In this document: positions 21,308 through 63,750 of the stretch, in pieces
Layout of the letters: the number at the start of each line of letters is the position of its first letter
How positions within the stretch are numbered: the first letter of the stretch is position 1
Assembly: GCF_900089605.1 (NCBI RefSeq)
Contig: NZ_LT594324.1
Span: 5,456,001 to 5,520,000, forward strand
Source: Micromonospora narathiwatensis
GTDB lineage: Bacteria; Actinomycetota; Actinomycetes; Mycobacteriales; Micromonosporaceae
Length of the DNA: 64,000 nt
Reading direction: 5' to 3'
The notes under the pieces: model-generated
What the model was told of the DNA's origin: nothing
The model's input: the letters and a program-made list of their open reading frames with translations, nothing else
Databases searched by the model: none
Translations under genes and position numbers: made by a program

Positions 21308-24004
21308 CTACTTGCTGGCCGGCTTCAGGCAGAGCACCCGGTCCGTCCCGTCACCGGGGAGCACCACCTGCGGCTGGGTCGGGTCGCCGCACTTCTCCTT
21401 GGAGTCGACCTTGGAGACGACCTTGAACGCGCCCGGCTCGGCGCAGTCGGCCTTGGCCGCGCTCGTGCCGGACTGCTTGATGCAGGCACCCACAGCCGGG
21501 TTGAACGGAGCCGGCTGTTCGTCGCTGCCACCGATCTTGCCGAGCAGGGTGAGCAGGCCGAGCGGGACGGCCAGGATCAGCACCGCCGCGATCAGCACGA
21601 GGGCCAGCACCCGACCGTTGCGGACCTTGGGGGTGGGCGCCTCGGTCTGCGGCTCGGCGTCCGGCTTGAACGCGTCGAAGCGGCCCTGCTCCGGCTCGCT
21701 GGTCGGAGCCTGCGACCAGGCCGGCGGTGCCGGCTGGGGCGGCGGGAAGCCGCCCGTACCCGGCTCGCCCATCGCCCCCGGCCCGGGTACGCCGACGGAC
21801 GCGCGACCGCTGCCGGGCCCGCCGAACGGGTCGGCCTGGCCGCCCGGTGCGCCGTACGGGTTGGGCTGACTACCGGGTGCGCCGTACGGGTCGGGCTGGC
21901 CGCCGGGTGCGCCGTACGGGTCGGGCTGGCCGCCGGGTGCGCCGTACGGGTCGGGCTGGCCGCCGGGTGCGCCGTACGGGTCGGGCTGGCCGCCGGGTGC
22001 GCCGTACGGGTCGGGCTGGCCGCCGGGTACGCCGTACGGGTCGGGCTGGCCGCCGGGTACGCCGAACGGATCCGGGCGACCAGGGCCGCCGAACGGGTCG
22101 CCGGGGCGCTCGTCGCTCTGTGGGTGCACCCCGTTGACCGGCCGGTTGTTGCCGACCGGGTCCACGAAGGACGGCACTCCGGGCGGGAACGGCGGCGGGC
22201 CGGCGGGGGAGGACGGCGCCAGCGGTGCCTCGGCGAAGGCGTGGGGACCCGCCGAACGGTCGGGCTCCTCGAACCGGGCCGGCGGGCCGGGCTCGTCGAA
22301 GCGCGGGCCCGACTCGGGGAAGCCGTTCGGGGCGTCCTGCCCGGGAACCTCCTCCGGTTCGGCGTGGGCCGGCCGGCCGTACACCCGCGGCTGCGGGGCC
22401 GGTACGCCGGCCGGGTGCAGGGGCTGGTCGGTGGGCGGCGTCACCCGGCTGGCCATCGGCACCGAGGCGCTGGCCGAGACGGCACCGGCCGCGCCGGACT
22501 CCGGCGAGGTACGCGGGCCGGGCACCACCGGCCCGGCCGGCGACTGCGGCTCCTCGTGCGCCGGCTCCGGCGTACCCCAACCGGCCTGCTCCGGCTCGTA
22601 CCCCTGCTCGGCCGGCTCGAACTGGGCCGGCGGAGCGTAGTCGGTGGGCGGCGAGGCGGCCAGGGTGGCACCCGGCACCCGCTGCTCCTGCGGCGGCAGC
22701 GGCACCGCGTTGGCCGGTGAGATGCCCGGGCCCGCGGCGGGCTGGTAGATGGGGGCCTCCCCGGCCCGGCCCGGCTCCCAGCCGTTCGACGGCGACTCGC
22801 CCGGAGCGGCCTCGGCGGACCGGCCCCACGCCTCACCCGGCGCCCAGGGCTCGGCGTCCGGGATGGCGGGGTGCTCGGGCGTCCGCTGCGCCGGGTTGTC
22901 CTGCATGCCGCCCCAGGCCGACGAGGAGTCCGCGGCCGGCACCGAGACGCTGGCGCGGGCCGGGGTCCAGGCGCCGGACTCCGGTCGGTCGCCCGGCGTC
23001 GGTACGGCGGCCGAGGCCCGTCCGGCCTGCGCCGGCTCGTCCGCCGGTCGGTCCTGGTCGTGCAGCTGCGCAGCGCCCCAGGCGGACGGCTGTGGGGCTT
23101 CGGCCTGCCCGGCGGCCCGCCCCGCGGCCCAACCGCCGGACCGATCCGGGTCGTCCTGTGCCGCCGGCCAGCTGTTGTCGGCGGGTGCGCCCGGCACCGA
23201 AACCTTGGCGGCGGCGCGGGCCGTCGGCTCGGCCGAGGCCCAGGCCGGCGCGGCTGCCTCGGTCGGCTGGCCCCAGGCCGGCTGGTCGTCCTGCGGTGGT
23301 CCGCCCCAGCCGCCGGGGTGGTTGGTCTCGTCCGGCTGACCGGTGGGGCCGGTGGGGGCACCCCATGGCTCCTGCGGCGTGGGGACCTGGGCGGCCCCCC
23401 GGGCGCCCGGCTCACCGGGCTGCGCCCAGGCCGGCTGCTCACTCTGGGCGGCGGCCGGTCCGGGGGCGGCGCCCCACGGGGACCCGGCCTGCTCGGCCGG
23501 GGTCGACCAGGCGGGCAGAGCCGGTTCGGGGGAGGCGGTCGGCGGGGCGGCGGCCCACGCGGGGGGCGCCTGTTCTCCGGACGGGGCGGGCGGGGCGGCG
23601 GCCCAGGCGGGCGTACCCTGCTCCGGCGCGCCCCAGGCCGGGCCGGCCTGCTCGGGAGCGGCCCACGCGGGCCCGCCCTGTTCCGGCGCACCCCAGGCGG
23701 GCTGGGGGGAAGCGTTCCACGCGCCCGGCTCACCGGCCGGCGGCACCTGCGCGGTGGCCCGACCGGTGGCGGGCTGGCCGCCCGGTTCCGCCCAGGCGGG
23801 GCGTTGGTCGTCGGGGGTGGCCCAGGCGGGGGCCGGCTGGGCGGATGATCCGGCCGGCGGGGGCGGGGCCCAGCCGAGGTCGGCAGCGCCGGGGTACCCG
23901 TTGTCCTGCTGCGCCGGGCGGTCGCCGTACGGCGCCGGTCCGCCGGCGCCCGGGGACACCTCTCCCGGCTCCTGGCCAGGTCGGTGCGGGGCCTCGGACG
24001 TCAT
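21308..24004 (-). CDS. Very long Pro/Ala/Gln-rich membrane protein with LppU-type C-terminal domain
   Basis: An 898-residue protein. About 780 residues at the N-terminus are disordered Pro/Ala/Gly/Gln/Trp-rich sequence: first repeats such as APEQAGPAWGAPEQ, later nine copies of a ten-residue unit PGGQPDPYGA. A single helix VLALVLIAAVLILAVPLGLLTLLG follows, then ~75 residues outside the membrane with four Cys (ACIKQ, DCAEP, KCGDP, LCLKP), the LppU/SCO3897 pattern with two likely disulfides. The long arm is thus cytosolic and the small domain outside. GGAGGAGG stands seven bases before ATG 24004. Function unknown; such arms often recruit partners or form condensates. Confidence 0.75.
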   Translation of the reverse strand: MTSEAPHRPGQEPGEVSPGAGGPAPYGDRPAQQDNGYPGAADLGWAPPPPAGSSAQPAPAWATPDDQRPAWAEPGGQPATGRATAQVPPAGEPGAWNASPQPAWGAPEQGGPAWAAPEQAGPAWGAPEQGTPAWAAAPPAPSGEQAPPAWAAAPPTASPEPALPAWSTPAEQAGSPWGAAPGPAAAQSEQPAWAQPGEPGARGAAQVPTPQEPWGAPTGPTGQPDETNHPGGWGGPPQDDQPAWGQPTEAAAPAWASAEPTARAAAKVSVPGAPADNSWPAAQDDPDRSGGWAAGRAAGQAEAPQPSAWGAAQLHDQDRPADEPAQAGRASAAVPTPGDRPESGAWTPARASVSVPAADSSSAWGGMQDNPAQRTPEHPAIPDAEPWAPGEAWGRSAEAAPGESPSNGWEPGRAGEAPIYQPAAGPGISPANAVPLPPQEQRVPGATLAASPPTDYAPPAQFEPAEQGYEPEQAGWGTPEPAHEEPQSPAGPVVPGPRTSPESGAAGAVSASASVPMASRVTPPTDQPLHPAGVPAPQPRVYGRPAHAEPEEVPGQDAPNGFPESGPRFDEPGPPARFEEPDRSAGPHAFAEAPLAPSSPAGPPPFPPGVPSFVDPVGNNRPVNGVHPQSDERPGDPFGGPGRPDPFGVPGGQPDPYGVPGGQPDPYGAPGGQPDPYGAPGGQPDPYGAPGGQPDPYGAPGGQPDPYGAPGSQPNPYGAPGGQADPFGGPGSGRASVGVPGPGAMGEPGTGGFPPPQPAPPAWSQAPTSEPEQGRFDAFKPDAEPQTEAPTPKVRNGRVLALVLIAAVLILAVPLGLLTLLGKIGGSDEQPAPFNPAVGACIKQSGTSAAKADCAEPGAFKVVSKVDSKEKCGDPTQPQVVLPGDGTDRVLCLKPASK
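21811..22080. repeat. Nine tandem copies of a 30-bp unit inside the LppU-type gene
   Basis: The period is exactly 30 bases; four consecutive copies (21901-22020) are identical and the outer ones differ by a few bases. Each encodes ten residues of the type PGGQPDPYGA. The number of copies is likely to vary between strains by slippage or unequal crossing-over without breaking the frame. Confidence 0.9.
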
Positions 24005-52995: not shown

Positions 52996-55512
52996 TCACA
53001 GCCGGGGGTCGACCGGCTCGGACTCGCAGGCGAGGACCGCGAAGACCAGCTCGTGCCGCCGCCAGAGCGGGGCGTCCTCGGCCAGGGCGTCCAGTGCGGC
53101 CAGGCCGAGGCCGTGCTCGCGCAGGGCCAGCCCGCGCTTGCGCCCCAGCGAGCGCCGGCGCAGCGCGGCGAGCTGACCCGGCTCGGTGTACCCGGGACCG
53201 TAGATGATCCGCAGGTACTCCCGGCCCCGGCACTTGATGCCCGGCTGGAGCAGCGCGCCCTTCGGCGAGCGGGCGGCGAGCCCGGCGTACGGCTTGACCA
53301 CCATGCCCTCACCGCCGGTCGCGGTAAGCGCCAGCCACCAGTCGGTCGCCGCCGCCACCGCCGCCTCGTCGGACAGGTCGACCACCTGCCGGCGGGTCGG
53401 CGTGAAGAACTCCGGGTCCGCCGCGTAGAGCCGGTCGGCCAGGGCCAGGTGCCAGCCGTGGTCCCGGTCGGCGTAGCTGGCCCCGGCCCCGGCCAGCACG
53501 GCGAACGGCGCCAGCGTCACCCCGCGCAGCCCGTCGGTCGGCCCGACGTACGCCCGGTACGCCGCCGAGTACGCCTCGATCTCGGACGCCCGGTCGGCGA
53601 GCCGGCCGCGCAGCTCCCCGATCGGCAGTCCCCGGCCGGCGGCGGCGTCGAGCGTGGCGAGCGCCGCCGGCAGGGCGGCCCGGCCGGCGGCACCCACGCC
53701 GGCGTACTGCTCGCGGATCAGGCTGCCCGCCTTCGCCGACCAGGGGAGCAGCTCGCAGTCGAGCAGCAGCCAGTCGGTGCCCAGCTCGGCCCAGAGCCCG
53801 GCCGACGTGACCGCCGCGCGAACCCGGGCCAGCAGCTCGTCGTCGAGCGGCGGACCGAAGAACGGTCGGCCGGTACGGGTGTACGCCGCTCCGCCGGCGA
53901 ACCGCCCCGGCTCCCGCTCCACCAGCACCACGGCCCGCGAGCCCATGTGCTTCTCCTCGCAGACCACCCGCTCGACACCGGCCGAGCGGTGGTCCGCGAA
54001 CGCCTCCGCCGGGTGCTCCAGGAACCCGTCGACCGTCGACGTCGAGCAGGGCGCCATGGTCGGCGGCAGCCAGACCAGCCGATCCGGGTCGACCGCGTAC
54101 CGGCTCATCACCTCCAGCGCGGCGGCGGCGTTCTCCGCCGGCACGGTCAGCGACCCGTACGCGTGGGTGAGGTGCCGCCGCCCGGTGACGTCGGCCAGGT
54201 CCAGCACGCTGTCCGGGCGGGCCGGCGCGGGCGGGACCAGCGGGCGGGCCGGGGCGTACCACTCCTTCGCCGCCGGGACGGAGACCAGCTCCTTCTCCGG
54301 GTACCGCAGCGCGGTGAGCCGGCCGCCGAAGACGCAGCCGGTGTCGATGCAGATGGTGTTGTTCACCCACTCCGGCTCCGGGGTGGGGGTGTGCCCATAC
54401 ACGACCATGGCCGAGCCCCGGTAGTCGCGCGCCCACGGGTAGCGCACCGGCAGGCCGTACTCGTCGGTCTCGCCGGTGGTCTCGCCGAACAGCGCGAAGG
54501 CGCGGACCCGGCCGGACGCCCGGCCCTGGTACGTCTCCTTCAGCCCGGCGTGCGCGACCACCAGCCGGCCGCCGTCCAGCACGTAGTGGCTGACCAGGCC
54601 GTCGACGAAGGTCGCCACGTCCGCGACGAACCCCGCCGGCTCCGACTCCAGCTGGGCCATCGTCTCGGCCAGGCCGTGGGTCAGCCGCACGTCCCGGCCG
54701 CGCAGCTTGCGCAGCAGCTTCTGCTCGTGGTTGCCCGGCACGCAGATCGCGTGGCCGGCCGCCACCATGCCCATCACCAGGCGGAGCACCCCGGGGGAGT
54801 CCGGGCCGCGGTCCACCAGGTCACCCACGAAGACCGGGGTACGCCCGGCGGGGTGCACCGCGTCCACCGGGCGGCCCGCGTCGTCGTGGGCCAGCGCGTA
54901 GCCCAGCCGGAGCAGCAGCGCCTCCAGTTCCTCCCGGCAGCCGTGCACGTCGCCGATGATGTCGAACGGCCCGGTCAGCTCGCGCCGGTCGTTGAACAGC
55001 TTCTCGTAGCGGATCTCGGCGGTGTCGATCTCCTCGACCCCGCGCAGTACGTGCACCTTGCGGAAGCCCTCCCGGGCCAGCCGCCCGTACGACTGCCGCA
55101 GGTCCCGCCGCATCCGGGTGAGCACCTGGCGGCCGTGCGTCCGGTCGGCCCGGCCCCGCGTACGCTCCCAGGCCAGCGCCTCCGGCACGTCCAGCACGAT
55201 CGCCACCGGCAGCACGTCGTGCTCGCGGGCCACCCTCACCAGGGCGGCCCGGGCGTGCGGCTGGAGGTTGGTCGCGTCGACCACGGTGAGCCGGCCCCGG
55301 CGCAGCCGCAGCCCGGCGACGTGGTGCAGCGCGTCGAACGCGTCGCCGGAGGCGGACTGGTCGTTCTCGTCGTCGGCCACCATCCCCCGGAAGGTGTCCG
55401 AGGAGAGCACCTGGCTGGGCCGGAAGTGCCGCCGGGCGAAGGTGGACTTGCCGGAGCCGGAGACGCCGACCAGCGCCACCAGGGCCAGCTCGGGAATGTC
55501 CAGGATGGTCAT
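52996..55512 (-). CDS. pnkp: Polynucleotide kinase-phosphatase-ligase Pnkp (RNA repair)
   Basis: An 838-residue three-domain protein. The kinase has P-loop GVSGSGKST at 16-24 and DATN. The phosphatase starts near 180 with GDVHG at 187-191, then GDLVDRG, GNHE and VAHAG, the metallophosphoesterase set. The nucleotidyltransferase/ligase has EEKHMGSR with the AMP-accepting Lys at 521, and later EGMVVKPY. It heals and, with Hen1, seals RNA broken by ribotoxins: kinase on 5'-OH ends, phosphatase on 2',3'-cyclic phosphates. Its ATG overlaps the hen1 stop by 4 bases. Size and order match the well-studied clostridial and Anabaena systems. Confidence 0.96.
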   Translation of the reverse strand: MTILDIPELALVALVGVSGSGKSTFARRHFRPSQVLSSDTFRGMVADDENDQSASGDAFDALHHVAGLRLRRGRLTVVDATNLQPHARAALVRVAREHDVLPVAIVLDVPEALAWERTRGRADRTHGRQVLTRMRRDLRQSYGRLAREGFRKVHVLRGVEEIDTAEIRYEKLFNDRRELTGPFDIIGDVHGCREELEALLLRLGYALAHDDAGRPVDAVHPAGRTPVFVGDLVDRGPDSPGVLRLVMGMVAAGHAICVPGNHEQKLLRKLRGRDVRLTHGLAETMAQLESEPAGFVADVATFVDGLVSHYVLDGGRLVVAHAGLKETYQGRASGRVRAFALFGETTGETDEYGLPVRYPWARDYRGSAMVVYGHTPTPEPEWVNNTICIDTGCVFGGRLTALRYPEKELVSVPAAKEWYAPARPLVPPAPARPDSVLDLADVTGRRHLTHAYGSLTVPAENAAAALEVMSRYAVDPDRLVWLPPTMAPCSTSTVDGFLEHPAEAFADHRSAGVERVVCEEKHMGSRAVVLVEREPGRFAGGAAYTRTGRPFFGPPLDDELLARVRAAVTSAGLWAELGTDWLLLDCELLPWSAKAGSLIREQYAGVGAAGRAALPAALATLDAAAGRGLPIGELRGRLADRASEIEAYSAAYRAYVGPTDGLRGVTLAPFAVLAGAGASYADRDHGWHLALADRLYAADPEFFTPTRRQVVDLSDEAAVAAATDWWLALTATGGEGMVVKPYAGLAARSPKGALLQPGIKCRGREYLRIIYGPGYTEPGQLAALRRRSLGRKRGLALREHGLGLAALDALAEDAPLWRRHELVFAVLACESEPVDPRL

Positions 55513-56945
55513 GCGCCGGTCTCCTCCTTCCGGGTCAGCACGGCGAGCTGCGTGGGGTTGCCCAGCTCGGGGTCGTCGTCGCCGACCCCGACGATCGTGG
55601 CGGTGTAGCCGTGGGTCGCCGACACACGCTCGACCCAGGCGGCGAACTCGGCCCGGGTCCACTCGAACCGGTGGTCGGCGTGCCGGAACCGGCCCGCGCC
55701 CAGCCCCTCGTAGCGGACGTTGTACTCGGCGTTCGGGGTGGTCACCACGACCGTGCCGGCCCGGGCGTGCCCGAACACCGCGTCCTCCAGCGCCGGCAGG
55801 CGCGGCGGGTCGACGTGCTCGATCACCTCCATGAGCACCGCCGCGTCGTAGCCGCGCAGCCGGTCGTCCCGGTAGGTCAGCGCCGACTGCCACAGCCTGA
55901 TCCGGTCCCGCTGCCGTTCCGGCAGCCGGTCCAGCCGTAGCCGCCGGGCGGCCAGGGTGAGCGCCTGACTCGACACGTCGGTGCCGACGATCTCGGTGAA
56001 CCGCCGGTCGGCGACCAGCGCGGCGAGCAGCGCCCCGGCCCCGCAGCCCAGGTCCAGCACCCGGGACGCCCCGCTGTCGCGCAGCGCGGCCAGCACCGCC
56101 TCGCGCCGGCGTACGGCCAGTGAGGCGCGCTTCTGGTCCGCCTCCTCAGCCGGTTCCGCCGGGTTGACGCTGTCGTCGGCGGGTGCCTCGTCGGCCAGCC
56201 GCAGCTCGGCGAGGCGGGCCAGCGCCTCACCCGCGAGGGCCCGGCGGTGCGCCAGGTAGCGGCGGGTGATCAGGGACCGCTCGGGGTGCTCGGCCAGCCA
56301 GCCGGCACCGGCCCGGAGCAGCTTGTCCACCTCGTCCGGCGCCACCCAGTAGTGCTTGGCGTCGTCCAGCACGGGCAGCAGCACGTACAGGTGGTTGAGC
56401 GCGTCGGCGACCCGCAGCTCGCCGGTGAGCGTCAGGTCGACGTAGCGGCTGTCGCCCCACTCCGGGTACGTCTCGTCGAGCGGGATCGGGGTGGCGGTCA
56501 CCGTCCAGCCGAGCGGGGCGAAGACCCGTACGGCCAGCTCGGCGCCGCCCCGGCAGCGCAGCACCGGCACCCGTACCTCCAGCGGGATCGGGGTGGCGGC
56601 CAGCTCCGGCCGGTCGCGGGACTCGCCGCGCAGCGCCGACCGGAACACCTTGGCGAGCGCGGAGGAGAGCAGGCTGGACGCGGCGTACGGGCGGTCGTTG
56701 ACGTACCGGCCGAGGGTGAAGGCGTCCGGGGTGGGCACCTGCCTGCGACCCTGACCGCCGCCCAGCCTGAGCGGATCGATCTCGACCAGCAGGGCCGCCG
56801 TGCACCGCTGCTCGTCCGCCTCGGGGTAGAGCACGTGCGCGGTGCCCGCCGGCAGGTCGAAGCTCTGCACGCGGTCCGGGTGCTTGACGAGGAGGTGGCC
56901 GAGGTCGGTCGCGGGGCGGTGGGTCGTGGTCAGGGTCAGCAGCAC
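55509..56945 (-). CDS. hen1: 3'-terminal RNA ribose 2'-O-methyltransferase Hen1
   Basis: A 478-residue protein. The first ~240 residues are the bacterial Hen1 N-terminal domain that activates the Pnkp ligase (GRYVNDRPYAASSLLSSALAKVFRSAL, DETYPEWGDSRYVDLTLTG). The C-terminal ~200 residues are the methyltransferase with SAM motif VLDLGCGAGALLAAL and the metal site EVIEHVDPPRL. It marks the 3' end at the break with a 2'-O-methyl before sealing so that the repaired RNA resists a second cut. GTG 56945 is the start in the conserved position. First gene of the operon. Confidence 0.96.
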   Translation of the reverse strand: MLLTLTTTHRPATDLGHLLVKHPDRVQSFDLPAGTAHVLYPEADEQRCTAALLVEIDPLRLGGGQGRRQVPTPDAFTLGRYVNDRPYAASSLLSSALAKVFRSALRGESRDRPELAATPIPLEVRVPVLRCRGGAELAVRVFAPLGWTVTATPIPLDETYPEWGDSRYVDLTLTGELRVADALNHLYVLLPVLDDAKHYWVAPDEVDKLLRAGAGWLAEHPERSLITRRYLAHRRALAGEALARLAELRLADEAPADDSVNPAEPAEEADQKRASLAVRRREAVLAALRDSGASRVLDLGCGAGALLAALVADRRFTEIVGTDVSSQALTLAARRLRLDRLPERQRDRIRLWQSALTYRDDRLRGYDAAVLMEVIEHVDPPRLPALEDAVFGHARAGTVVVTTPNAEYNVRYEGLGAGRFRHADHRFEWTRAEFAAWVERVSATHGYTATIVGVGDDDPELGNPTQLAVLTRKEETGA

Positions 56946-57065: not shown

Positions 57066-58649
57066 TCAGGCGACGAAGCGCGTCTTGCGGCGGCGGGCCA
57101 CCACGTAGCCGCCCACGCCGGCCGTGAGGAGCAGGGCGCCGACGCCGGCGATCAGGCCGGTGGAGCTACCGGTGATCGGCAGCGTGCCGCCGTCGCCGCC
57201 GTGGCCATCGCCACCGCCACCGCCACCGGCGTCGCCCTGGCCGCCCGCTGCGGTTACGACGATCTTGGCGAGGTCGTTGGCCGGGTTCAGGTCCTGCAAT
57301 CCGTCGTCGTGCGCGTCGTTGTGGAGCAGCTGGACCTCGCCGGTGAGGGTGCCGGCCTTGTCGATACGCAGGGTGAACGGGAACTCGGCCTTCTTGCCGC
57401 GGCCCACCACTTCAGGCAGGTAGCAGGCGTAGACGGCAGCATCGGCCTTGCCGGCGGTGCACTGCTCCGGGGCCTTCGTCGCCGTGGTGCCCTCGGGCAG
57501 GGTGACCAGCACCACGGTGTAGCGGCCTTGCTCGCCACCGGCGTTGATCGCTGCCGGGCCGTTGTTGGTGAAGCCGACCGTGACCGGGATGCTCTCGCCG
57601 ACCTCTCCGCGCACGGTGGCGCCGTCGGCCGCCACATCGGCCTGCTGGTCACCCTGCACGGTGAGCTGAATCCACGTCTCGTTGTTGGTCGGGTCGACGT
57701 CGGTCTGTTCCTTGAGCAGGCGGCTCATGGTGCGGGAGGGAGCCGACGACGTGAGCGTGAGGACACCGTCGTCGCCCCTGGTGCTCTCTCCGAGGCCGGG
57801 CATCTGGGCCCGGAACGCGTCCCAGTCGGCCGGGGTCATCCAGATGGCGGAGCCGTTGACCTTGTTCGGGGCCCAGGCGTCACCAGGGATGGCGAAGGCG
57901 AACGAGTCGTCCAGCTTTGCGCTGCCGCCCGCCGTCACTGTGCCGTCGAGCTTGCAGGCGTAGACGTTCGTGGCGAAACTGTTCGCGAAGTACTCGCAGT
58001 TCTGGTACCGCCTGGACGGGGCCAGCTCGTACGAGCCGTAGAAGAAGAGGACGGCTCCGTGGACGTGAGTCTGACCCTGGTTGCCCACCTCGAGCGCCGC
58101 CCGCACAGTGCTGCCCGGGCTGCCGTTCAGGTGAAGCAAGGGCTCGGCGGTCAGGTCGACGCCCTCGCCGACGGTGATGGTGGACTCGTAGCTGGCCGTC
58201 CCGGCGTTCTGCGTGGTGACCGTGTACTTCAGCGTGCCTTCCTGCCCCGCCTTGGCGGTCTCCCGAGGCAGCACGGGGAGGGTGAGCAGGCTGAGGCTCG
58301 GCTTCGGGTCGACCTTCTTCACGCAGGTGAGGACGGCGCCCTCCTCGCTGCAGGAGCCCTGACCCACCGGCATCCGCACCTCAGCGAAGCCGTCGACGTC
58401 GCTGCGATCCACCTTGACGGTGTAGTCGGTGAATGGCTCGTTCACCAGCGAGTACAGCGAGATCCACTTCTCCGGTCCGCCGGGGGCGACGATGACGGGG
58501 TTCGCATACAGCGAGAAGCCCTGGGCGCCCTTGACGTCGGCGATGCTGGGGGTGGGGTCAGCCGCGAAGGCGGGGGTGGCGGAGGCGGCGACGAACGCGC
58601 CTGCGACGCCCAACCCGGCGAGCCAGCGCCGGGCGGAGTTCCTGAGCAT
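57066..58649 (-). CDS. LPXTG cell-wall anchored surface protein (tandem copy A)
   Basis: A 527-residue protein. Signal peptide MLRNSARRWLAGLGVAGAFVAASATPAFA. The C-terminus has a Gly/Asp-rich linker, LPITG, a helix and RRRKTRF, a standard sortase signal, so it is linked to peptidoglycan. In between are about three beta-sandwich-like units of ~130 residues with the motif GEGVDL and conserved Cys (NCEYF, ACKL, QCTAG, ACYLP) likely in disulfides, of the DUF11/CARDB-like type. It is the most diverged of the three tandem copies. No sortase is encoded in the window. Function unknown; adhesion or surface coat is a guess. Confidence 0.8.
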   Translation of the reverse strand: MLRNSARRWLAGLGVAGAFVAASATPAFAADPTPSIADVKGAQGFSLYANPVIVAPGGPEKWISLYSLVNEPFTDYTVKVDRSDVDGFAEVRMPVGQGSCSEEGAVLTCVKKVDPKPSLSLLTLPVLPRETAKAGQEGTLKYTVTTQNAGTASYESTITVGEGVDLTAEPLLHLNGSPGSTVRAALEVGNQGQTHVHGAVLFFYGSYELAPSRRYQNCEYFANSFATNVYACKLDGTVTAGGSAKLDDSFAFAIPGDAWAPNKVNGSAIWMTPADWDAFRAQMPGLGESTRGDDGVLTLTSSAPSRTMSRLLKEQTDVDPTNNETWIQLTVQGDQQADVAADGATVRGEVGESIPVTVGFTNNGPAAINAGGEQGRYTVVLVTLPEGTTATKAPEQCTAGKADAAVYACYLPEVVGRGKKAEFPFTLRIDKAGTLTGEVQLLHNDAHDDGLQDLNPANDLAKIVVTAAGGQGDAGGGGGGDGHGGDGGTLPITGSSTGLIAGVGALLLTAGVGGYVVARRRKTRFVA

Positions 58650-58677
58650 GTGGGGTCCTCCTGTGGGATGGATGCCG

Positions 58678-58848
58678 CGACGCCCCGCCGACCGGTGCCG
58701 GTCGACGGGGCGTCGGGTGGTGTCGTACCGATCAGGCGACGAACCGGGTCTTGCGACGGCGGGCGATCACGTAGCCGCCCGCGCCGGCCGCCAGCAGCAG
58801 GGCGCCGATGCCGGCGATCAGGCCGGTGGAGGAACCGGTGATCGGCAG
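58678..58848. repeat. 171-bp segment identical to 60412-60582
   Basis: No base differs between 58678-58848 and 60412-60582 over 171 bases. It covers the terminator, the stop and the last ~40 codons (anchor signal) of copies B and C. Confidence 0.9.
58679..58714 (-). terminator. Terminator of the second LPXTG gene
   Basis: A 17-bp stem with one mismatch (58679-58695 with 58698-58714), loop TG, 18 bases after the stop. Repeated exactly at 60413-60448. Confidence 0.85.
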
Positions 58849-60270
58849 CGTGCCGCCGTCACCGCCGTCACCGCCGCCCTGGCCGCCGTTGCCCTTGATG
58901 ACCAGGGCAGCGGTGTCGTTGCGCGGGTTGAGGTCGGCCACCGGGCCGTGGCTCTCCAGGTCGAAGTGGATCAGCTTCACCGAGCCCGGCGCGGCGTCGA
59001 CCTTGTCGATCCGCAGGCCGAACTCGAAGAGGGCCTTGTCGCCCTTGTGCAGGGTTTCGAACCACTCGCAGAAGTAGACCTTGGCGCCCGGCTTGCTCGG
59101 CCCGCCCTCGATGTCGTCGGAGCACTCGACCGGGGCGGTTACGACCGTGGCGCCGGCGGGGACGGAGACCTGCGCGATGGTCACGATCTCACCGCCCGGC
59201 GAGTACGAGTTGGTCATGGCCGGGCCGTTGTTCACGAAGCCGACCTTGGCCTGGACCGTCCGGCCCACGGTGCCCGGCAGTTCGGCGCCGATCGCGGCCA
59301 CGTCGGCCCGCTGCTCGCCGGTCACCTCCACCTCGATGCCGGTGCCGTTGTTGGTGGTGTCCTTGTCGGTCTGCCGCAGTGCCTGCACCTGCGCGTTCGA
59401 CGCGGGGACCAGCTTCAGCGGGGCACCGGTGCCCTGCTGCCAGCCGTCCACCTCCTTCAGCTCGGTCTCGATCTCCTCCCAGTCGCCCTTGGCGTACCAC
59501 GACGCGAAGCCGAACAGCTGGCCCGGGGCCCAGGCGTCCGGGGCGATCCGCAGCCCGGACGAGCCGTCCAGCCGCATCCCGGTGCCCGGGGCGATGTCAT
59601 CGTCGAAGGTGCACTGCGCGAAGTGCGACCCGAAGCCGTCGAGGTAGGAGCAGTTGCTGTGACGCTTGGCGGGGGCGAGGGCCTCCATGGTCGCCAGCAG
59701 GAGCACCGTGCCGTGGCTGGTCGTGTCGCCGATGTTCGCGACCGTGATCGGAGCCGCGATGGTGGTGCCCGGAGCGCCCGCCGCGGTGATGTCAGGCCCC
59801 GCCGCGAGGTCGACGCCCTCGCCGATCTCGACAGTTGCGCGGGTGGTCGCCTTCCGGCCGTCGCCGGCAAGGCTCAGTACGACATCGCCCTTCGCGCCGA
59901 CCTCGGCCTTGTCGTCGGCCTTGACGGTCAGGTCGACGACGTAGTCGATGACGTTCTCGTCATCGAGGGCACAGGTGATGACCGCGCCGGCCTCCTTGCA
60001 GCCGGTCAGGCGGTCGGTCAGGGTGACCGAGGCGAAGCCCTGGACGGCGGTGCGGTCAATGGTGAGCGTCAGCTTCTTGGGCAGGGCCTCGGCGTAGGCG
60101 AGCAGGGTGACGTTCCGGGCCTCACCGCCAGGAGCCACGAGCGCGTTGTTCGCGTAGAGCAGCACGTCGTTCGCGGGCGGTGCGGCGGCGGCGGGGGTGG
60201 CGGAGGCGGCGACGAACGCGCCTGCGACGCCCAACCCGGCGAGCCAGCGCCGGGTGGAGTTGCTGAGCAT
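58732..60270 (-). CDS. LPXTG cell-wall anchored surface protein (tandem copy B)
   Basis: A 512-residue protein. Signal peptide MLSNSTRRWLAGLGVAGAFVAASATPAAA. The last ~40 residues, GGDGGTLPITGSSTGLIAGIGALLLAAGAGGYVIA and RRRKTRFVA, are nearly the same in all three copies. The interior holds beta-rich repeats with GEGVDL and Cys pairs (NCSYL, QCTFD, ECSDD, FCEWF) aligned with copies A and C but with low identity. GGGAGG stands upstream of the ATG, and a promoter with an inverted repeat lies at 60312-60330. It has its own terminator. Confidence 0.8.
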   Translation of the reverse strand: MLSNSTRRWLAGLGVAGAFVAASATPAAAAPPANDVLLYANNALVAPGGEARNVTLLAYAEALPKKLTLTIDRTAVQGFASVTLTDRLTGCKEAGAVITCALDDENVIDYVVDLTVKADDKAEVGAKGDVVLSLAGDGRKATTRATVEIGEGVDLAAGPDITAAGAPGTTIAAPITVANIGDTTSHGTVLLLATMEALAPAKRHSNCSYLDGFGSHFAQCTFDDDIAPGTGMRLDGSSGLRIAPDAWAPGQLFGFASWYAKGDWEEIETELKEVDGWQQGTGAPLKLVPASNAQVQALRQTDKDTTNNGTGIEVEVTGEQRADVAAIGAELPGTVGRTVQAKVGFVNNGPAMTNSYSPGGEIVTIAQVSVPAGATVVTAPVECSDDIEGGPSKPGAKVYFCEWFETLHKGDKALFEFGLRIDKVDAAPGSVKLIHFDLESHGPVADLNPRNDTAALVIKGNGGQGGGDGGDGGTLPITGSSTGLIAGIGALLLAAGAGGYVIARRRKTRFVA

Positions 60271-60379
60271 GTTTTGGGTTCCTCCCGTGGGATTCAGGTG
60301 GAGCGCGTGCAGCTTAGAGAAGCCTTAAGCCGCTCCGCTGTCCCGGTTGCCTGGTCGGCGTGTCGAACCGGCTGAAAGG
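60191..60379. repeat. ~189-bp segment nearly identical to 61961-62149
   Basis: It spans the signal peptide codons, ribosome site, leader, operator and upstream DNA of copies B and C. In 189 bases I count only about four differences (for example TTAGAG against TTAAAG). Confidence 0.85.
60312..60330 (-). promoter_or_regulatory. Inverted-repeat operator before LPXTG copy B
   Basis: GCTTAG-N7-TTAAGC, one mismatch from the perfect dyad GCTTAA-N7-TTAAGC before copy C. AT-rich in this GC-rich genome. TAAGCT/TAAGCT-like hexamer in its downstream arm is the likely -10 on the minus strand (CTAAGC here). Confidence 0.5.
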
Positions 60380-60412
60380 TTGATCATCTTTCGGACGACT
60401 TGGCGCAACGAC

Positions 60413-60448
60413 GACGCCCCGCCGACCGGTGCCGGTCGACGGGGCGTC
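60413..60448 (-). terminator. Terminator of the third LPXTG gene
   Basis: The same 17-bp stem with one mismatch and loop TG as at 58679-58714, 18 bases after the stop of copy C. Confidence 0.85.
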
Positions 60449-60465
60449 GGGTGGTGTCGTACCGA

Positions 60466-62040
60466 TCAGGCGACGAACCGGGTCTTGCGACGGCGGGCGA
60501 TCACGTAGCCGCCCGCGCCGGCCGCCAGCAGCAGGGCGCCGATGCCGGCGATCAGGCCGGTGGAGGAACCGGTGATCGGCAGGGTCCCGCCGTCACCGCC
60601 GCCCTGGCCGCCGTCGTTGCCGCCGCCAGCGGCGGGGTTCACCACGAGCTTCGCGGTGTCGTTGGCCGGCTTCAGGTCCCGGTAGAAACCGCCGTCGCAC
60701 TGGCACGGGACGTTGATCTTGACGATCCCGGTCGCGTTCGCGATCACCTTGTCGATGCGGAGCGTGAAGTCACGGGTGGCGGTGTCGCCGGCCTTGAGGA
60801 AGGGGTCGAAGTAGCAGCGGTAGTGACGCGCCCCCGGCTCGCCCGGCTCGCCCCACTTGTCGCCGTTCACCGGCGCGCAGCTCTGCGGTACCTCCACCGC
60901 GGTCGTGCCCTTGGGCACGTCGAGCGCCATGTAGGTGATGGAACTGCCGGCCCGGTTGTAGTCGAGCGTCGCCGGGCCGTTGTTGCGGACCCCGACGGTC
61001 GCCTTCACCAGGTCACCGACCTTGCCGGTCAGCGTGGCGCCGAGCGCCTCGAGGTCGGTGCTGTTCTTGCCGGTGACCTTCACCGCGAGGTGGGACGAGT
61101 TGTTGTCCGGCTGGGTGTCCGCCTGGACCGCCTTGCTCATCTTGGCGCTGGCCTCGGCCAGGGTCAGCTCGCCGTCGGTGCCCGGCTTACCGATGGTCGC
61201 CTCGAAGTGGTTGATGTAGCGCTGGAAGTCCTCGAACTCGGCCGGGGTCATCCAGACGACTTCGCCGTACTTGAGACCAGGGGCGAAGCTGTCCGCACCG
61301 AGAACGTACGGAAGCGTCGCGCTGAAGGTGGTGCCGGCCGGCAGGTCCTCCTTGAACTGGCAGGTACGCAGCTCGTTGCCGACGTACGTGCAGTTGCTGA
61401 AGCGCTTGCCGGCGTTGAGGCCGTAGTCGTTGTAGAAGACGACGGTGGCACCCTTGGCGGTGGTGCCGCCCGCGTTGGTGACGCTGAGCGGCGCGGTGAA
61501 GCTCTTCCCGGGGGCCAGCGAGAGTTCGGTCGGTGCACCGGCGGCCAGGTCGACGCCCTCGCCGACCCGGACGGTCGACTCGTGCGCGATCGCGTCGATG
61601 CCGGCGGCGCTCACCGTCATCTTGAGCTTGCCGCTGTCGCCGTCCTTCGCCGTGTCGGTCGGGGTGAGCTGGACCGGGAAGATGCCGGCCAGACCCCACT
61701 CCTCGACACCGACCTCCCACATCGAGGTGCAGAGCAGCACGTGCTTCGACGGGCTGGTGCACTCGCCGATGGTGTCCTCGTAGGCCGTGACGTCGATCTT
61801 TCCAGCCAGGTCGCTGAAGTCGTACCGGACGGTGAGGTCGTGCAGCAGGACCGGGGCCGAGGCGTAGATGATGCCGTCTTCGACCTTGCCGGCGGTGCCG
61901 GTGGCGACCGTGCTGTCGTTGAAGTACCAGCCGAGCTTGACCTGCGACTTCTCGGCGAGAGCGGGGGTGGCGGAGGCGGCGACGAACGCGCCTGCGACGC
62001 CCAACCCGGCGAGCCAGCGCCGGGTGGAGTTGCTGAGCAT
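60466..62040 (-). CDS. LPXTG cell-wall anchored surface protein (tandem copy C)
   Basis: A 524-residue protein. Signal peptide MLSNSTRRWLAGLGVAGAFVAASATPALA; C-terminal anchor LPITGSSTGLIAGIGALLLAAG and basic tail, as in copies A and B. Interior beta-rich units keep GEGVDLAAG, Asn-Cys-Thr-Tyr and the Cys pairs (ECTSP, LCTSM, TCQF, SCAPV, RCYF, PCQCD) that match copies A and B. The promoter lies in the 178 bases shared with the divergent sigma factor gene, and GGGAGG precedes the ATG. Function unknown. Confidence 0.8.
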   Translation of the reverse strand: MLSNSTRRWLAGLGVAGAFVAASATPALAEKSQVKLGWYFNDSTVATGTAGKVEDGIIYASAPVLLHDLTVRYDFSDLAGKIDVTAYEDTIGECTSPSKHVLLCTSMWEVGVEEWGLAGIFPVQLTPTDTAKDGDSGKLKMTVSAAGIDAIAHESTVRVGEGVDLAAGAPTELSLAPGKSFTAPLSVTNAGGTTAKGATVVFYNDYGLNAGKRFSNCTYVGNELRTCQFKEDLPAGTTFSATLPYVLGADSFAPGLKYGEVVWMTPAEFEDFQRYINHFEATIGKPGTDGELTLAEASAKMSKAVQADTQPDNNSSHLAVKVTGKNSTDLEALGATLTGKVGDLVKATVGVRNNGPATLDYNRAGSSITYMALDVPKGTTAVEVPQSCAPVNGDKWGEPGEPGARHYRCYFDPFLKAGDTATRDFTLRIDKVIANATGIVKINVPCQCDGGFYRDLKPANDTAKLVVNPAAGGGNDGGQGGGDGGTLPITGSSTGLIAGIGALLLAAGAGGYVIARRRKTRFVA

Positions 62041-62149
62041 GTTTTGGGTTCCTCCCGTGGGATTCAGGTGGAGCGCGTGCAGCTTAAAGAAGCCTTAAGC
62101 CGCTCCGCAGTCCCGGTTGCCTGGTCGGCGTGTCGAACCGGCTGAAAAG
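61961..62149. repeat. ~189-bp segment nearly identical to 60191-60379
   Basis: The partner of the segment at 60191; it covers the start of copy C and its upstream regulatory DNA. Confidence 0.85.
62082..62100 (-). promoter_or_regulatory. Inverted-repeat operator before LPXTG copy C
   Basis: Perfect dyad GCTTAA-N7-TTAAGC. On the minus strand TAAGCT (62086-62081) is the likely -10, with TGCGGA 17 bases upstream as a weak -35, so a protein bound here would cover the promoter. The leader would be about 35 bases. Confidence 0.55.
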
Positions 62150-62218
62150 CTGATCGTCCGGTCGTGCAATCTTCGGTTGTCCCCAGCCCGTCAACAGGGC
62201 GGGACACCGGGAGGTGCA

Positions 62219-62698
62219 GTGACGTACGAGGAGTTCGCCGACGCACGGCTGGGCGCCCTGCTGCGGTACGCGGTCATGCTGACCGGGGATCCGCACCAGG
62301 CGCAGGACCTGGTGCAGGAGACCATGGTGCGGGTCCAGCTGAACTGGCGGCGGGTGGCCCGGAGCGACGTGCCGGAGCGGTACGTCCGCCGGATGCTCAC
62401 CAACCAGTACGTCGACTGGCGGCGCGGCTCGTGGGCGCGGCGGGTGCTGCTCCGTGGTGAACCGGACGAGGTGCCCGTGCCGACCGACCACGCCCAGTCC
62501 GCGGTGGACCGGGACGAGCTGTGGTCCTGGCTGTCCCGGCTGCCCCGCCGACAGCGCGCCGCGTTGGTGCTCCGCTACTACGAGGACCTGCCCGACGCCG
62601 AGATCGCGGAGATTCTCGGCTGCGCCGTCGGCACGGTCCGCTCCTGCATCTCCCGGGCGCTGGCCACCCTGCGAGCCGAGTACATGGAGGTCTGCTGA
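62219..62698 (+). CDS. SigE-family RNA polymerase sigma factor
   Basis: A 159-residue ECF-type sigma factor of the actinobacterial SigE group. Region 2 is TYEEFADARLGALLRYAVMLTGDPHQAQDLVQETMVRVQLNWRRV, and region 4 is LSRLPRRQRAALVLRYYEDLPDAEIAEILGCAVGTVRSCISRALATLR. GTG 62219 has GGGAGG five bases upstream. It overlaps the LCP-family gene by one base (TGATG), and the pair is divergent from LPXTG copy C, which makes that locus a plausible target. The anti-sigma function in such pairs is often carried by the membrane partner. Confidence 0.88.
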   Translation: MTYEEFADARLGALLRYAVMLTGDPHQAQDLVQETMVRVQLNWRRVARSDVPERYVRRMLTNQYVDWRRGSWARRVLLRGEPDEVPVPTDHAQSAVDRDELWSWLSRLPRRQRAALVLRYYEDLPDAEIAEILGCAVGTVRSCISRALATLRAEYMEVC

Positions 62699-63750
62699 TG
62701 ATCGAAAACGACCTGCGGGCCGCCTTCGCGCGGCTGGAGGCGCTGACCCCGCCCATCGGCCCGGTCCGCGTAGCCATCGAGCGGGCCGCGGTCCGCCGCC
62801 GGCGCCGCCGTTTCCGGCTCCGGCTCGGTGGTACGGCGCTGTTGCTGGTCGCCGCCGCCACGGCCGGCTTCACGGCGTTCGTGCCGCACCAGCCGGCACC
62901 CGCGACCCTGCTCGGTGAGCCGGCGCCGCCGACCCCGACCGGCGCGCTGAACGTGCTGCTGCTCGGTGTCGACTCGACGTCGACGCAGCGTCCCCCGCTG
63001 GCCGACTCGGTGCTGCTCGTGCACCTCCCGGCCGACCGCAGCCGGCCGTATCTGGTCTCGCTCCCGCGCGACCTGGAGGTCGCCATCCCCGGGCTGCACC
63101 GGGACAAGCTCAACGCGGCCTTCGCGTACGGTGCGGGCTACGACCCGCCCGACCAGAGCAAGGGCTACGACCTGACCCGTCGGGCGGTCGTCGACCTGAT
63201 CGGCGTACCCGTCGACGCCGGCGCCGTGCTGACGTACCCGGTGCTGCGGAAGGTGACCGACGCGCTGGGCGGGGTGGAGGTCTGCCTGCCGCAGCAGATC
63301 AGGTCCTCGCACACCCGCCGGGCGTACCCGGCCGGCTGCCAGCGCCTCGACGGGTCCGCCTCCGTCGACCTGCTGCGACAGCGGCGAGGGCTGCCCGACG
63401 GAGGTCTGGACCGGGACCGTAACGCCCAGCGGTTCGCGGCCGGCCTGGTCCGCCGGGCCAGAGCGAAGGATGTGTTGGGCGACCCGGTGCAACTCTCCCG
63501 CATCGTCGCCGCGGTGGGCCCGGACCTGACCGTGGCCGGCGGATCGGTGCTGGACCTGCTGCGGGTCGTCCCGGAGTTGACCTCGGTCGAGCCGGTCGGG
63601 CTCAGCCTGCCGGTCGAGCTGACGGAGGGCTCCAACGGGCGGCTGCACGCGGATCCGAGGGCCGCCCCGGCCTTCCTGGCCGCGTTGCGGGAGGATCGGC
63701 TGGCCGAGTGGGCGGCGGCGCACCCGGACCGGGTCACCCCGATCCGCTGA
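62698..63750 (+). CDS. LytR-CpsA-Psr (LCP) family membrane protein
   Basis: A 350-residue protein. About 40 cytosolic residues (MIENDLRAAFARLEALTPP, then an Arg-rich stretch) precede one helix (GGTALLLVAAATAGFTAFV). The outer part is an LCP domain: NVLLLGVDS, RPPLADSVLLVHL with the Asp, SLPRDLEVAIPG, KLNAAFAYG, and DRDRNAQRFAAGL with Arg residues that hold the pyrophosphate. LCP enzymes transfer polymers such as teichoic acids or arabinogalactan to peptidoglycan. The short cytosolic head resembles those of proteins paired with SigE-family sigma factors, so it may also hold the sigma factor. Confidence 0.87.
   Translation: MIENDLRAAFARLEALTPPIGPVRVAIERAAVRRRRRRFRLRLGGTALLLVAAATAGFTAFVPHQPAPATLLGEPAPPTPTGALNVLLLGVDSTSTQRPPLADSVLLVHLPADRSRPYLVSLPRDLEVAIPGLHRDKLNAAFAYGAGYDPPDQSKGYDLTRRAVVDLIGVPVDAGAVLTYPVLRKVTDALGGVEVCLPQQIRSSHTRRAYPAGCQRLDGSASVDLLRQRRGLPDGGLDRDRNAQRFAAGLVRRARAKDVLGDPVQLSRIVAAVGPDLTVAGGSVLDLLRVVPELTSVEPVGLSLPVELTEGSNGRLHADPRAAPAFLAALREDRLAEWAAAHPDRVTPIR

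What the first reader, a model, noticed from the sequence alone, without database searches (positions are those of the whole stretch)
57066..62149. Three tandem LPXTG surface proteins with identical ends and diverged centres
The genes at 57066, 58732 and 60466 encode related wall-anchored proteins. Copies B and C share a 171-base identical 3' block (anchor, stop, terminator) and a ~189-base near-identical 5' block (signal, leader, operator), but the ~430-residue centres have low identity and keep only Cys and GEGVDL positions. This is the mark of a family in which the ends are homogenised by gene conversion or recombination while the exposed part varies. It may be an antigen- or adhesin-like variation cassette in a soil bacterium.
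Basis: partly seen in the sequence, partly recalled or inferred. Interest (0 to 1): 0.75.

Follow-up and report, generated by a model that had tools for sequence, protein, structure and literature searches.

The report
Swappable surface-protein slot in Micromonospora
In the soil bacterium Micromonospora one chromosomal slot holds zero to three wall-anchored surface proteins whose two ends belong to the genome they sit in, while the exposed middle part appears to be swapped between related species by recombination, a pattern best known from pathogen surface antigens.

Summary
Confirmed and extended. Genes A (57066-58649), B (58732-60270) and C (60466-62040), all minus, encode 512-527-aa proteins: signal peptide, three predicted Ig-like domains, Gly linker, LPITG anchor. 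B and C share an exact 171-nt 3' block and a 187-nt 5' block with 2 mismatches; fourfold sites differ 0/20 and 2/36 in the ends, 46/95 in the centre. The family is in 123 of 160 genomes of the genus. In 57 of 80 loci a copy sits next to a divergent sigma-factor/LCP operon, often with hen1-pnkp beyond. Five centre lineages (A-E) fill this slot differently in different species; some slots are empty or hold a relic. Species with nearly identical flanks carry different-lineage centres, with steps just inside the signal and anchor codons. Centre type on the flank tree is indistinguishable from shuffled (26 changes, mean 27.6), while the ends follow the flank. One centre looks recently transferred between species (5/255 against 155/1131). 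Best reading: a recombinational surface-protein slot whose conserved ends act as homology arms, working like the streptococcal emm locus. Function is inferred.

The parts
57066..58649 (-). Copy A: 527-aa LPITG wall-anchored protein, A-type centre
   Evidence: DUF11 just over the Pfam cut-off (24.7 against 24.6 bits)
58732..60270 (-). Copy B: 512-aa LPITG wall-anchored protein, B-type centre
   Evidence: model mean pLDDT 83
60466..62040 (-). Copy C: 524-aa LPITG wall-anchored protein, C-type centre, in 'slot 1' next to the sigma-factor gene
   Evidence: model mean pLDDT 84
58678..58848 (-). 3' block of B (anchor codons, stop, hairpin), identical over 171 nt to the block of C
   Evidence: fourfold differences 2/36 over the last 45 codons
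60412..60582 (-). 3' block of C, identical to that of B
   Evidence: offset 1734
60191..60377 (-). 5' block of B (signal-peptide codons plus upstream module), 187 nt with 2 mismatches to C
61961..62147 (-). 5' block of C
   Evidence: offset 1770
62083..62099 (.). Palindromic element CTTAA-N7-TTAAG upstream of C (copy with one change at 60313-60329 upstream of B)
   Evidence: read; a looser pattern of this type is in 54 of 114 family upstream regions, 0.1 in mononucleotide shuffles; regulatory role inferred
58682..58711 (-). Hairpin after B (same hairpin after C)
62219..62698 (+). Divergent SigE-family sigma factor, a constant flank of the slot
   Evidence: TIGR02983 161.6 bits against 141.55
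62698..63750 (+). LCP-family (LytR-CpsA-Psr) protein, overlapping the sigma-factor gene (ATGA)
   Evidence: PF03816, TIGR00350
55509..56945 (-). hen1 RNA 2'-O-methyltransferase, the other flank
   Evidence: TIGR04074
52996..55512 (-). pnkp polynucleotide kinase-phosphatase, flank
   Evidence: TIGR04075

Best explanation
This is a recombinational slot for a wall-anchored surface protein. Shown by sequence: a slot beside a sigma-factor/LCP operon, in many species followed by hen1-pnkp, holds 0-3 genes; the start (upstream module, signal peptide) and end (anchor, hairpin) are shared between many neighbours in one genome and follow the flanking genes across species; the roughly 430-residue ectodomain comes in old lineages (A-E) spread over species without visible regard to the flank tree. 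Inferred mechanism: ordinary homologous recombination uses the conserved ends as homology arms. Double crossovers with DNA from other strains or species replace the ectodomain, and crossovers or conversion between tandem copies change copy number and keep the ends alike; the centres are too diverged to convert each other. Inferred function: three stacked Ig-like domains on a sortase anchor form a short rod for surface contact or recognition, whose distal part is the most variable, so that lineages change surface specificity while secretion, expression and anchoring stay fixed.
For: Concerted ends: for 14 adjacent pairs without a D-type member (28 directed comparisons, ties counted in favour) the neighbour has the most similar anchor of 113 other copies in 13 and a top-3 anchor in 17 (random partner 0.7% and 3%), signal top-1 in 7, centre top-1 in 2, both from one recent duplicate; with the 4 D-type pairs, anchor top-1 is 13 of 36. 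Window B/C ends at fourfold sites: P .005 and .003 under between-genome rates. Replacement: M. saelicesensis (B) against M. arida (C): LCP .904, SIG .985, upstream .958, signal 1.000, centre .61-.66, anchor .970, downstream .983; M. chaiyaphumensis (C) against unnamed G146 (A): LCP .901, SIG .962, HEN1 .962, PNKP .968, signal .975, centre .64-.70, anchor .948. Slot-1 pairs with flank fourfold divergence under .1.1-.15 and .15-.2 differ in fine centre class in 4 of 7, 24 of 39 and 53 of 58. Type changes on the flank tree: 26, shuffled mean 27.6 and minimum 23 (13 fine classes: 29, mean 30.3, minimum 27); anchor similarity follows the sigma gene (partial r .56) more than the centre (.15), 1540 pairs. 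Recent centre transfer L049/L113: 5/255 fourfold in the centre, 155/1131 in flanks, p 1.7e-9; 21 differences in -200..+100, 10 in the next 1300 nt, 39 beyond +1400. Copy loss: relic in L132, empty slots in L133, L137, L138. Variability gradient between types D1 .27, D2 .35, D3 .41 identity (domain borders).
Against: No strain-level or long-read data, so exchange within a species and its rate are not seen. The comparison tree is of the flanking genes, not of the core genome, so ends following the sigma gene may partly reflect linkage on one transferred fragment. The order of types in multi-copy arrays is largely E-C-B-A, which differential loss also predicts. Only 2 of 351 same-class slot-1 pairs have a centre significantly less diverged than the flanks, and one of them (L049/L113) is strong. 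The window's own trio shows homogenised ends but no dated exchange. Several adjacent pairs are not or only partly homogenised (L083, L098, L105, the signal end of L102, the anchor end of the first L079 pair, the D copies). No binding partner is known.
Confidence: 0.8

Rival explanations
1. Differential loss only: an ancestral tandem array (order E-C-B-A) lost different members in each lineage by deletion between similar ends, without horizontal exchange.
For: Order is collinear in most multi-copy arrays seen (E-C, C-A, C-B-A, E-E-C; C-B in L083 and E-C in L098). A deletion relic exists.
Against: No locus holds all types and 47 of 57 slots hold one gene, although my choice of loci favoured multi-copy genomes, so losses would have to be mostly recent while ancestors kept long arrays. 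Array A-E in L105 breaks the order. L049/L113 shows a centre younger than its flanks. 23 of 351 same-class pairs have centres significantly more diverged than their flanks, which loss alone explains only through further hidden paralogues.
Confidence: 0.15
2. Ends conserved by purifying selection or codon constraint alone; no recombination.
For: Signal and anchor are conserved in protein across the family.
Against: Fourfold sites in the ends differ at .23-.25 between genomes when centres are of different lineages, but near zero between neighbours in several genomes; identity extends into non-coding DNA; ends follow the flank more than the centre.
Confidence: 0.02
3. Programmed antigenic or phase variation in a clone, with silent donors and a dedicated recombinase.
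For: Copy A has no upstream module of its own and lies 82 nt behind B.
Against: Only three full copies in the single-contig 6.6-Mb genome, each a complete ORF; the three other matches at E<=0.01 cover only the anchor region. None of the six flanking proteins scanned is a recombinase (other genes of the window not scanned).
Confidence: 0.03

Closest known systems
Group A streptococcal Mga locus (mga-mrp-emm-enn-scpA), emm switching
   Same: One slot between a constant regulator gene and a constant downstream gene, 1-3 tandem LPXTG paralogues, conserved signal peptide and anchor end, distal part most variable, replacement by double crossover (PMC6952200, passages; PMC10700362, abstract, section list and introduction).
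   Different: M proteins are coiled-coil fibres under the regulator Mga in a human pathogen; here predicted Ig-like domains, a SigE-family sigma factor and LCP protein, and soil actinomycetes. Pfam gave no M-protein match.
Flagellin (conserved C1/C2, variable central V region)
   Same: Conserved gene ends with a highly variable central surface region (PMC7018530, three passages).
   Different: Flagellin ends are structural filament domains; here the ends are the secretion and sorting signals.
Clostridioides difficile SlpA / S-layer cassette
   Same: Variable surface-protein cassette; SlpA is reported as a phage receptor (PMC10100898, title and start of abstract in a search listing; cassette recombination recalled).
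   Different: S-layer protein, other fold and anchoring (recalled).
Fibrillar adhesins with DUF11/CLIPPER stalk domains
   Different: Short ectodomain (about 430 residues) with no recognised adhesive domain.
SrtE substrates SspA, CwpA, CwpB of Actinoplanes missouriensis (also Micromonosporaceae)
   Same: Sortase-anchored surface proteins affecting sporangium formation and colony spread (PMC13251363, PMC13293333, passages).
   Different: SspA is predicted disordered and the three share an LPVTG motif; no swapping slot is mentioned in the passages read. No sequence comparison was made.

Membership tests
LPXTG sortase substrate | Sorting signal above curated cut-off, hydrophobic segment, basic tail | tested here: met
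   TIGR01167 18.4/19.5/19.5 against 15.9; Pfam Gram_pos_anchor stays below its cut-off (14.3-16 against 20); C-terminal helix 492-518 in the C model
LPXTG sortase substrate | Sortase in the same genome | tested here: met
   six PF04203 matches over the cut-off
DUF11/CLIPPER domain | Pfam gathering score | tested here: inconclusive
   A 24.7 against 24.6, met; C 16.1, not met; B no match listed up to E 1; the C model superposes on 9ifr
Fibrillar adhesin | Known adhesive domain at the wall-distal end | tested here: not met
   no adhesive Pfam family up to E 1 in A, B or C; works-like only
emm/M-like protein family | Coiled-coil fibril under Mga between mga and scpA | tested here: not met
   beta-sandwich models; flanks are sigma factor/LCP and hen1
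Surface-protein slot with recombinational replacement (works-like class) | Same locus, constant flanks and ends, different-lineage centres in close relatives | tested here: met
Antigenic variation by silent cassettes (pilS, vls type) | Silent partial donor copies in the same genome | tested here: not met
   three full copies; the other three matches are anchor-only, in other ORFs
Antigenic variation by silent cassettes (pilS, vls type) | Switching within a clone | not testable with these tools
   no reads held

The most novel reading that the evidence does not exclude
A genus-wide, long-lived polymorphism of surface identity in free-living actinomycetes: strains keep exchanging the ectodomain of one sortase-anchored rod through its constant ends, driven by phages or by recognition between mycelia rather than by an immune system, so that the surface type is uncoupled from species phylogeny.
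Probability: 0.4. Interest if true: 0.75.

Novelty: new variant of a known kind. Interest (0 to 1): 0.62.

Why it matters
Surface-antigen switching loci are explained mostly by host immunity. A slot of the same logic in soil bacteria without such a host points to another selective force (phage adsorption, partner or kin recognition) and offers a clean comparative system: constant promoter region, signal and anchor, interchangeable ectodomain lineages, and empty-slot species. It also gives proteins annotated only as 'LPXTG cell wall anchor domain-containing protein' a testable role, and warns that trees of such surface proteins in this genus need not follow species.

Tried and rejected
Ends constrained at codon level: rejected (fourfold sites). 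Clocklike orthologous trios: rejected. Random shuffling of gene order: not supported; order E-C-B-A mostly held, L105 (A-E) is the exception. Diversifying selection by point mutation: NG86 on 14 chosen close pairs gave dN/dS of 0.00-0.89 in domains 1-3 and one linker value of 1.10, so variety seems to come from replacement rather than from visible positive selection. The first flank search used wrong reading frames for the sigma factor and LCP and was redone. A CCNTTYGG core is in 94 of 114 upstream regions, 3.3 in mononucleotide shuffles (the regions are related, so not independent), but the window's B and C carry a changed form, and I could not assign it to the sigma factor. Whole-model PDB hits to integrin alpha legs (Foldseek TM about 0.2; VIA rmsd mostly 16-30 over the whole rod) are read as generic stacked Ig-like domains only. 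D-type genes as a clocklike control: median agrees, but some D pairs (for example L052 with others) are less diverged than their SIG/LCP flanks (.17-.24 against .36-.41), so D or its flanks may also have been exchanged.

Paper searches for this system: 'Micromonospora+LPXTG+sortase' (7 papers; two read in passages, neither on this family there); 'actinomycetes+surface protein+gene conversion+LPXTG' (1, unrelated by title and abstract start); conserved ends/variable central/actinobacteria and others, four of five terms (1, the flagellin paper); 'Micromonospora+DUF11+surface' (0); concerted evolution/LPXTG/gene conversion/surface protein, three of four (45 papers, 12 listed, none on this by title). 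Only open-licence papers are held.

Rows dropped: two short family ORFs (413 and 229 aa) and repeats of identical proteins; pairs with too few comparable sites; one of 57 loci lacks pair data. Regions were chosen by me with a preference for multi-copy genomes, so copy-number fractions are not unbiased. Of 37 no-match genomes, 20 were searched for the sigma factor; 8 matched (7 at 86-96% identity, one at 48%); the 7 were fetched and read.
Full report
What is there. Three minus-strand genes encode proteins of 527 (A), 512 (B) and 524 (C) residues with a signal peptide, a roughly 430-residue ectodomain, a Gly/Asp linker and an LPITG anchor scoring above NCBIfam's cut-off. The genome is one 6.6-Mb contig with only these three full copies; three further matches at E <= 0.01 cover only the anchor part of other ORFs. 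It belongs to Micromonospora or very near it: the named relatives are almost all of that genus, with a few from Verrucosispora, Salinispora, Plantactinospora and Phytohabitans (42 loci, 120 listed of 320 proteins, some unnamed).

Ends and centres. B and C are identical over 171 nt at the 3' end and differ at 2 of 187 positions at the 5' end, both blocks reaching into non-coding DNA. At fourfold sites B and C differ at 0/20 (signal) and 2/36 (anchor), but 46/95 in the centre, near saturation. Between genomes the ends differ at .23-.25 of such sites when centres are 30-45% identical, so the B/C ends are improbably alike (P .005 and .003). A shares less: 65 nt at the 5' end and short runs at the 3' end.

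The family across the genus. 123 of 160 genomes of the genus (own genome included) have a match at E <= 1e-15 to copy C. From the window and loci I collected 114 distinct proteins in 80 loci. A tree of the centres gives five lineages, here called A to E (the letters are mine, assigned by nearest example; single linkage at 60% gives 22 finer classes). In 57 of the 80 loci a family gene starts beside a divergent SigE-family sigma-factor gene, and in many of them hen1-pnkp follow; in the other 23 no such pairing was found, in part because loci are short or cut. D genes usually sit on the other side of the LCP gene. In the 57, the slot holds one gene in 47, two in 8 and three in 2, with contents (by the finer classes' letters) C (23), B (7), E (7), A (5), D (5), E-C (4), and C-A, D-A, E-E-C, E-E, A-E and the window's C-B-A once each. 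Of 20 no-match genomes examined (of 37), 8 have the sigma factor. In L138, L137 and L133 it lies 107-178 nt from the start of the hen1 match with no family gene found; L134-L136 have the sigma factor but neither family gene nor hen1 in the stretch taken. L132, close to the window (PNKP 94.9%, SIG 95.4% in DNA), keeps only an anchor relic with a scrap of the third domain.

Evidence for exchange. Sister species on the flank tree carry different centres: L045 B and L068 C; L051 C and L087 A; L035 C and L103 B; L090 A and L096 B. Along the gene, identity is high through flanks, upstream region and signal codons, falls to about .6-.7 (gapped alignment) within some 100 nt of the start codon, and rises again at the linker/anchor. 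Type changes on the flank tree number 26 for 5 states against a shuffled mean of 27.6 (minimum 23, 300 shuffles), so no phylogenetic signal is visible (an earlier 56-locus tree gave 27). Anchor and signal similarity follow the sigma gene (partial r .56 and .40, permutation p .001) more than the centre (.15 and .14, p .009 and .016). Among slot-1 pairs with flank fourfold divergence under .1.1-.15 and .15-.2, centre classes differ in 4 of 7, 24 of 39 and 53 of 58. Within the same class, 23 of 351 pairs have centres significantly more diverged than their flanks and 2 less. The strong case is M. tulbaghiae L049 against L113: 5/255 in the centre against 155/1131 in four flank genes, with a mirror-image map, differences crowding outside the centre. 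The D genes outside the slot agree with their flanks in the median (.185 against .178) with some exceptions, and are not homogenised with slot genes. Proteins listed under one species name share anchors but differ in the centre (M. musae P0007/P0113, M. chersina P0016/P0042, M. echinaurantiaca P0026/P0044; sequences, judged by eye); whether these are alleles or paralogues, and whether the names are right, was not testable.

Regulation. The sigma factor (TIGR02983) and LCP gene overlap. A CTTAA-N7-TTAAG-like element lies about 61 nt upstream of 54 of 114 genes (0.1 in shuffles) and a CCNTTYGG core about 109 nt upstream of 94 of 114 (3.3 in shuffles). C carries the CTTAA element, B a copy with one change; A does not and may depend on read-through (inference).

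Verdict. It is a new variant of a known kind (recombining surface-protein loci such as emm, flagellin, slpA). I did not find it described in the paper searches named in Tried and rejected, which cover only open-licence papers.

Noticed in passing
L132:8201-8443 (-): A close relative of the window strain (PNKP 94.9% in DNA) keeps only a lone LPITG anchor with a short scrap of the third domain between sigma factor and hen1: a deletion relic of the slot.
   Followed up: partly
62698-63750: The LCP protein is 50-77% identical to its counterparts in other species where the overlapping sigma factor is 85-97%; whether it co-varies with the centre type was not tested.
   Followed up: no
62041-62158 and upstream regions of the family: Conserved upstream modules: the CCNTTYGG core occurs in some members of all five lineages (A 8/13, B 9/10, C 42/48, D 22/26, E 13/17); the window's B and C carry a changed core.
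   Followed up: partly
   Followed up: no
   Followed up: partly
L138:7327-7805: The sigma-factor gene beside this empty slot matches in two frames, so it may be broken there.
   Followed up: no
L006 and L123 (genome positions near 5683947 and 5684542): Another LPXTG-type ORF lies next to a sortase match elsewhere in the genome.
   Followed up: no
22001-24000: A 2-kb stretch of unusually high GC (0.81) in the window.
   Followed up: no
52996-56945: The RNA-repair pair Pnkp/Hen1 forms the far flank of the slot in many species; in others it was not found in the stretch held.
   Followed up: partly
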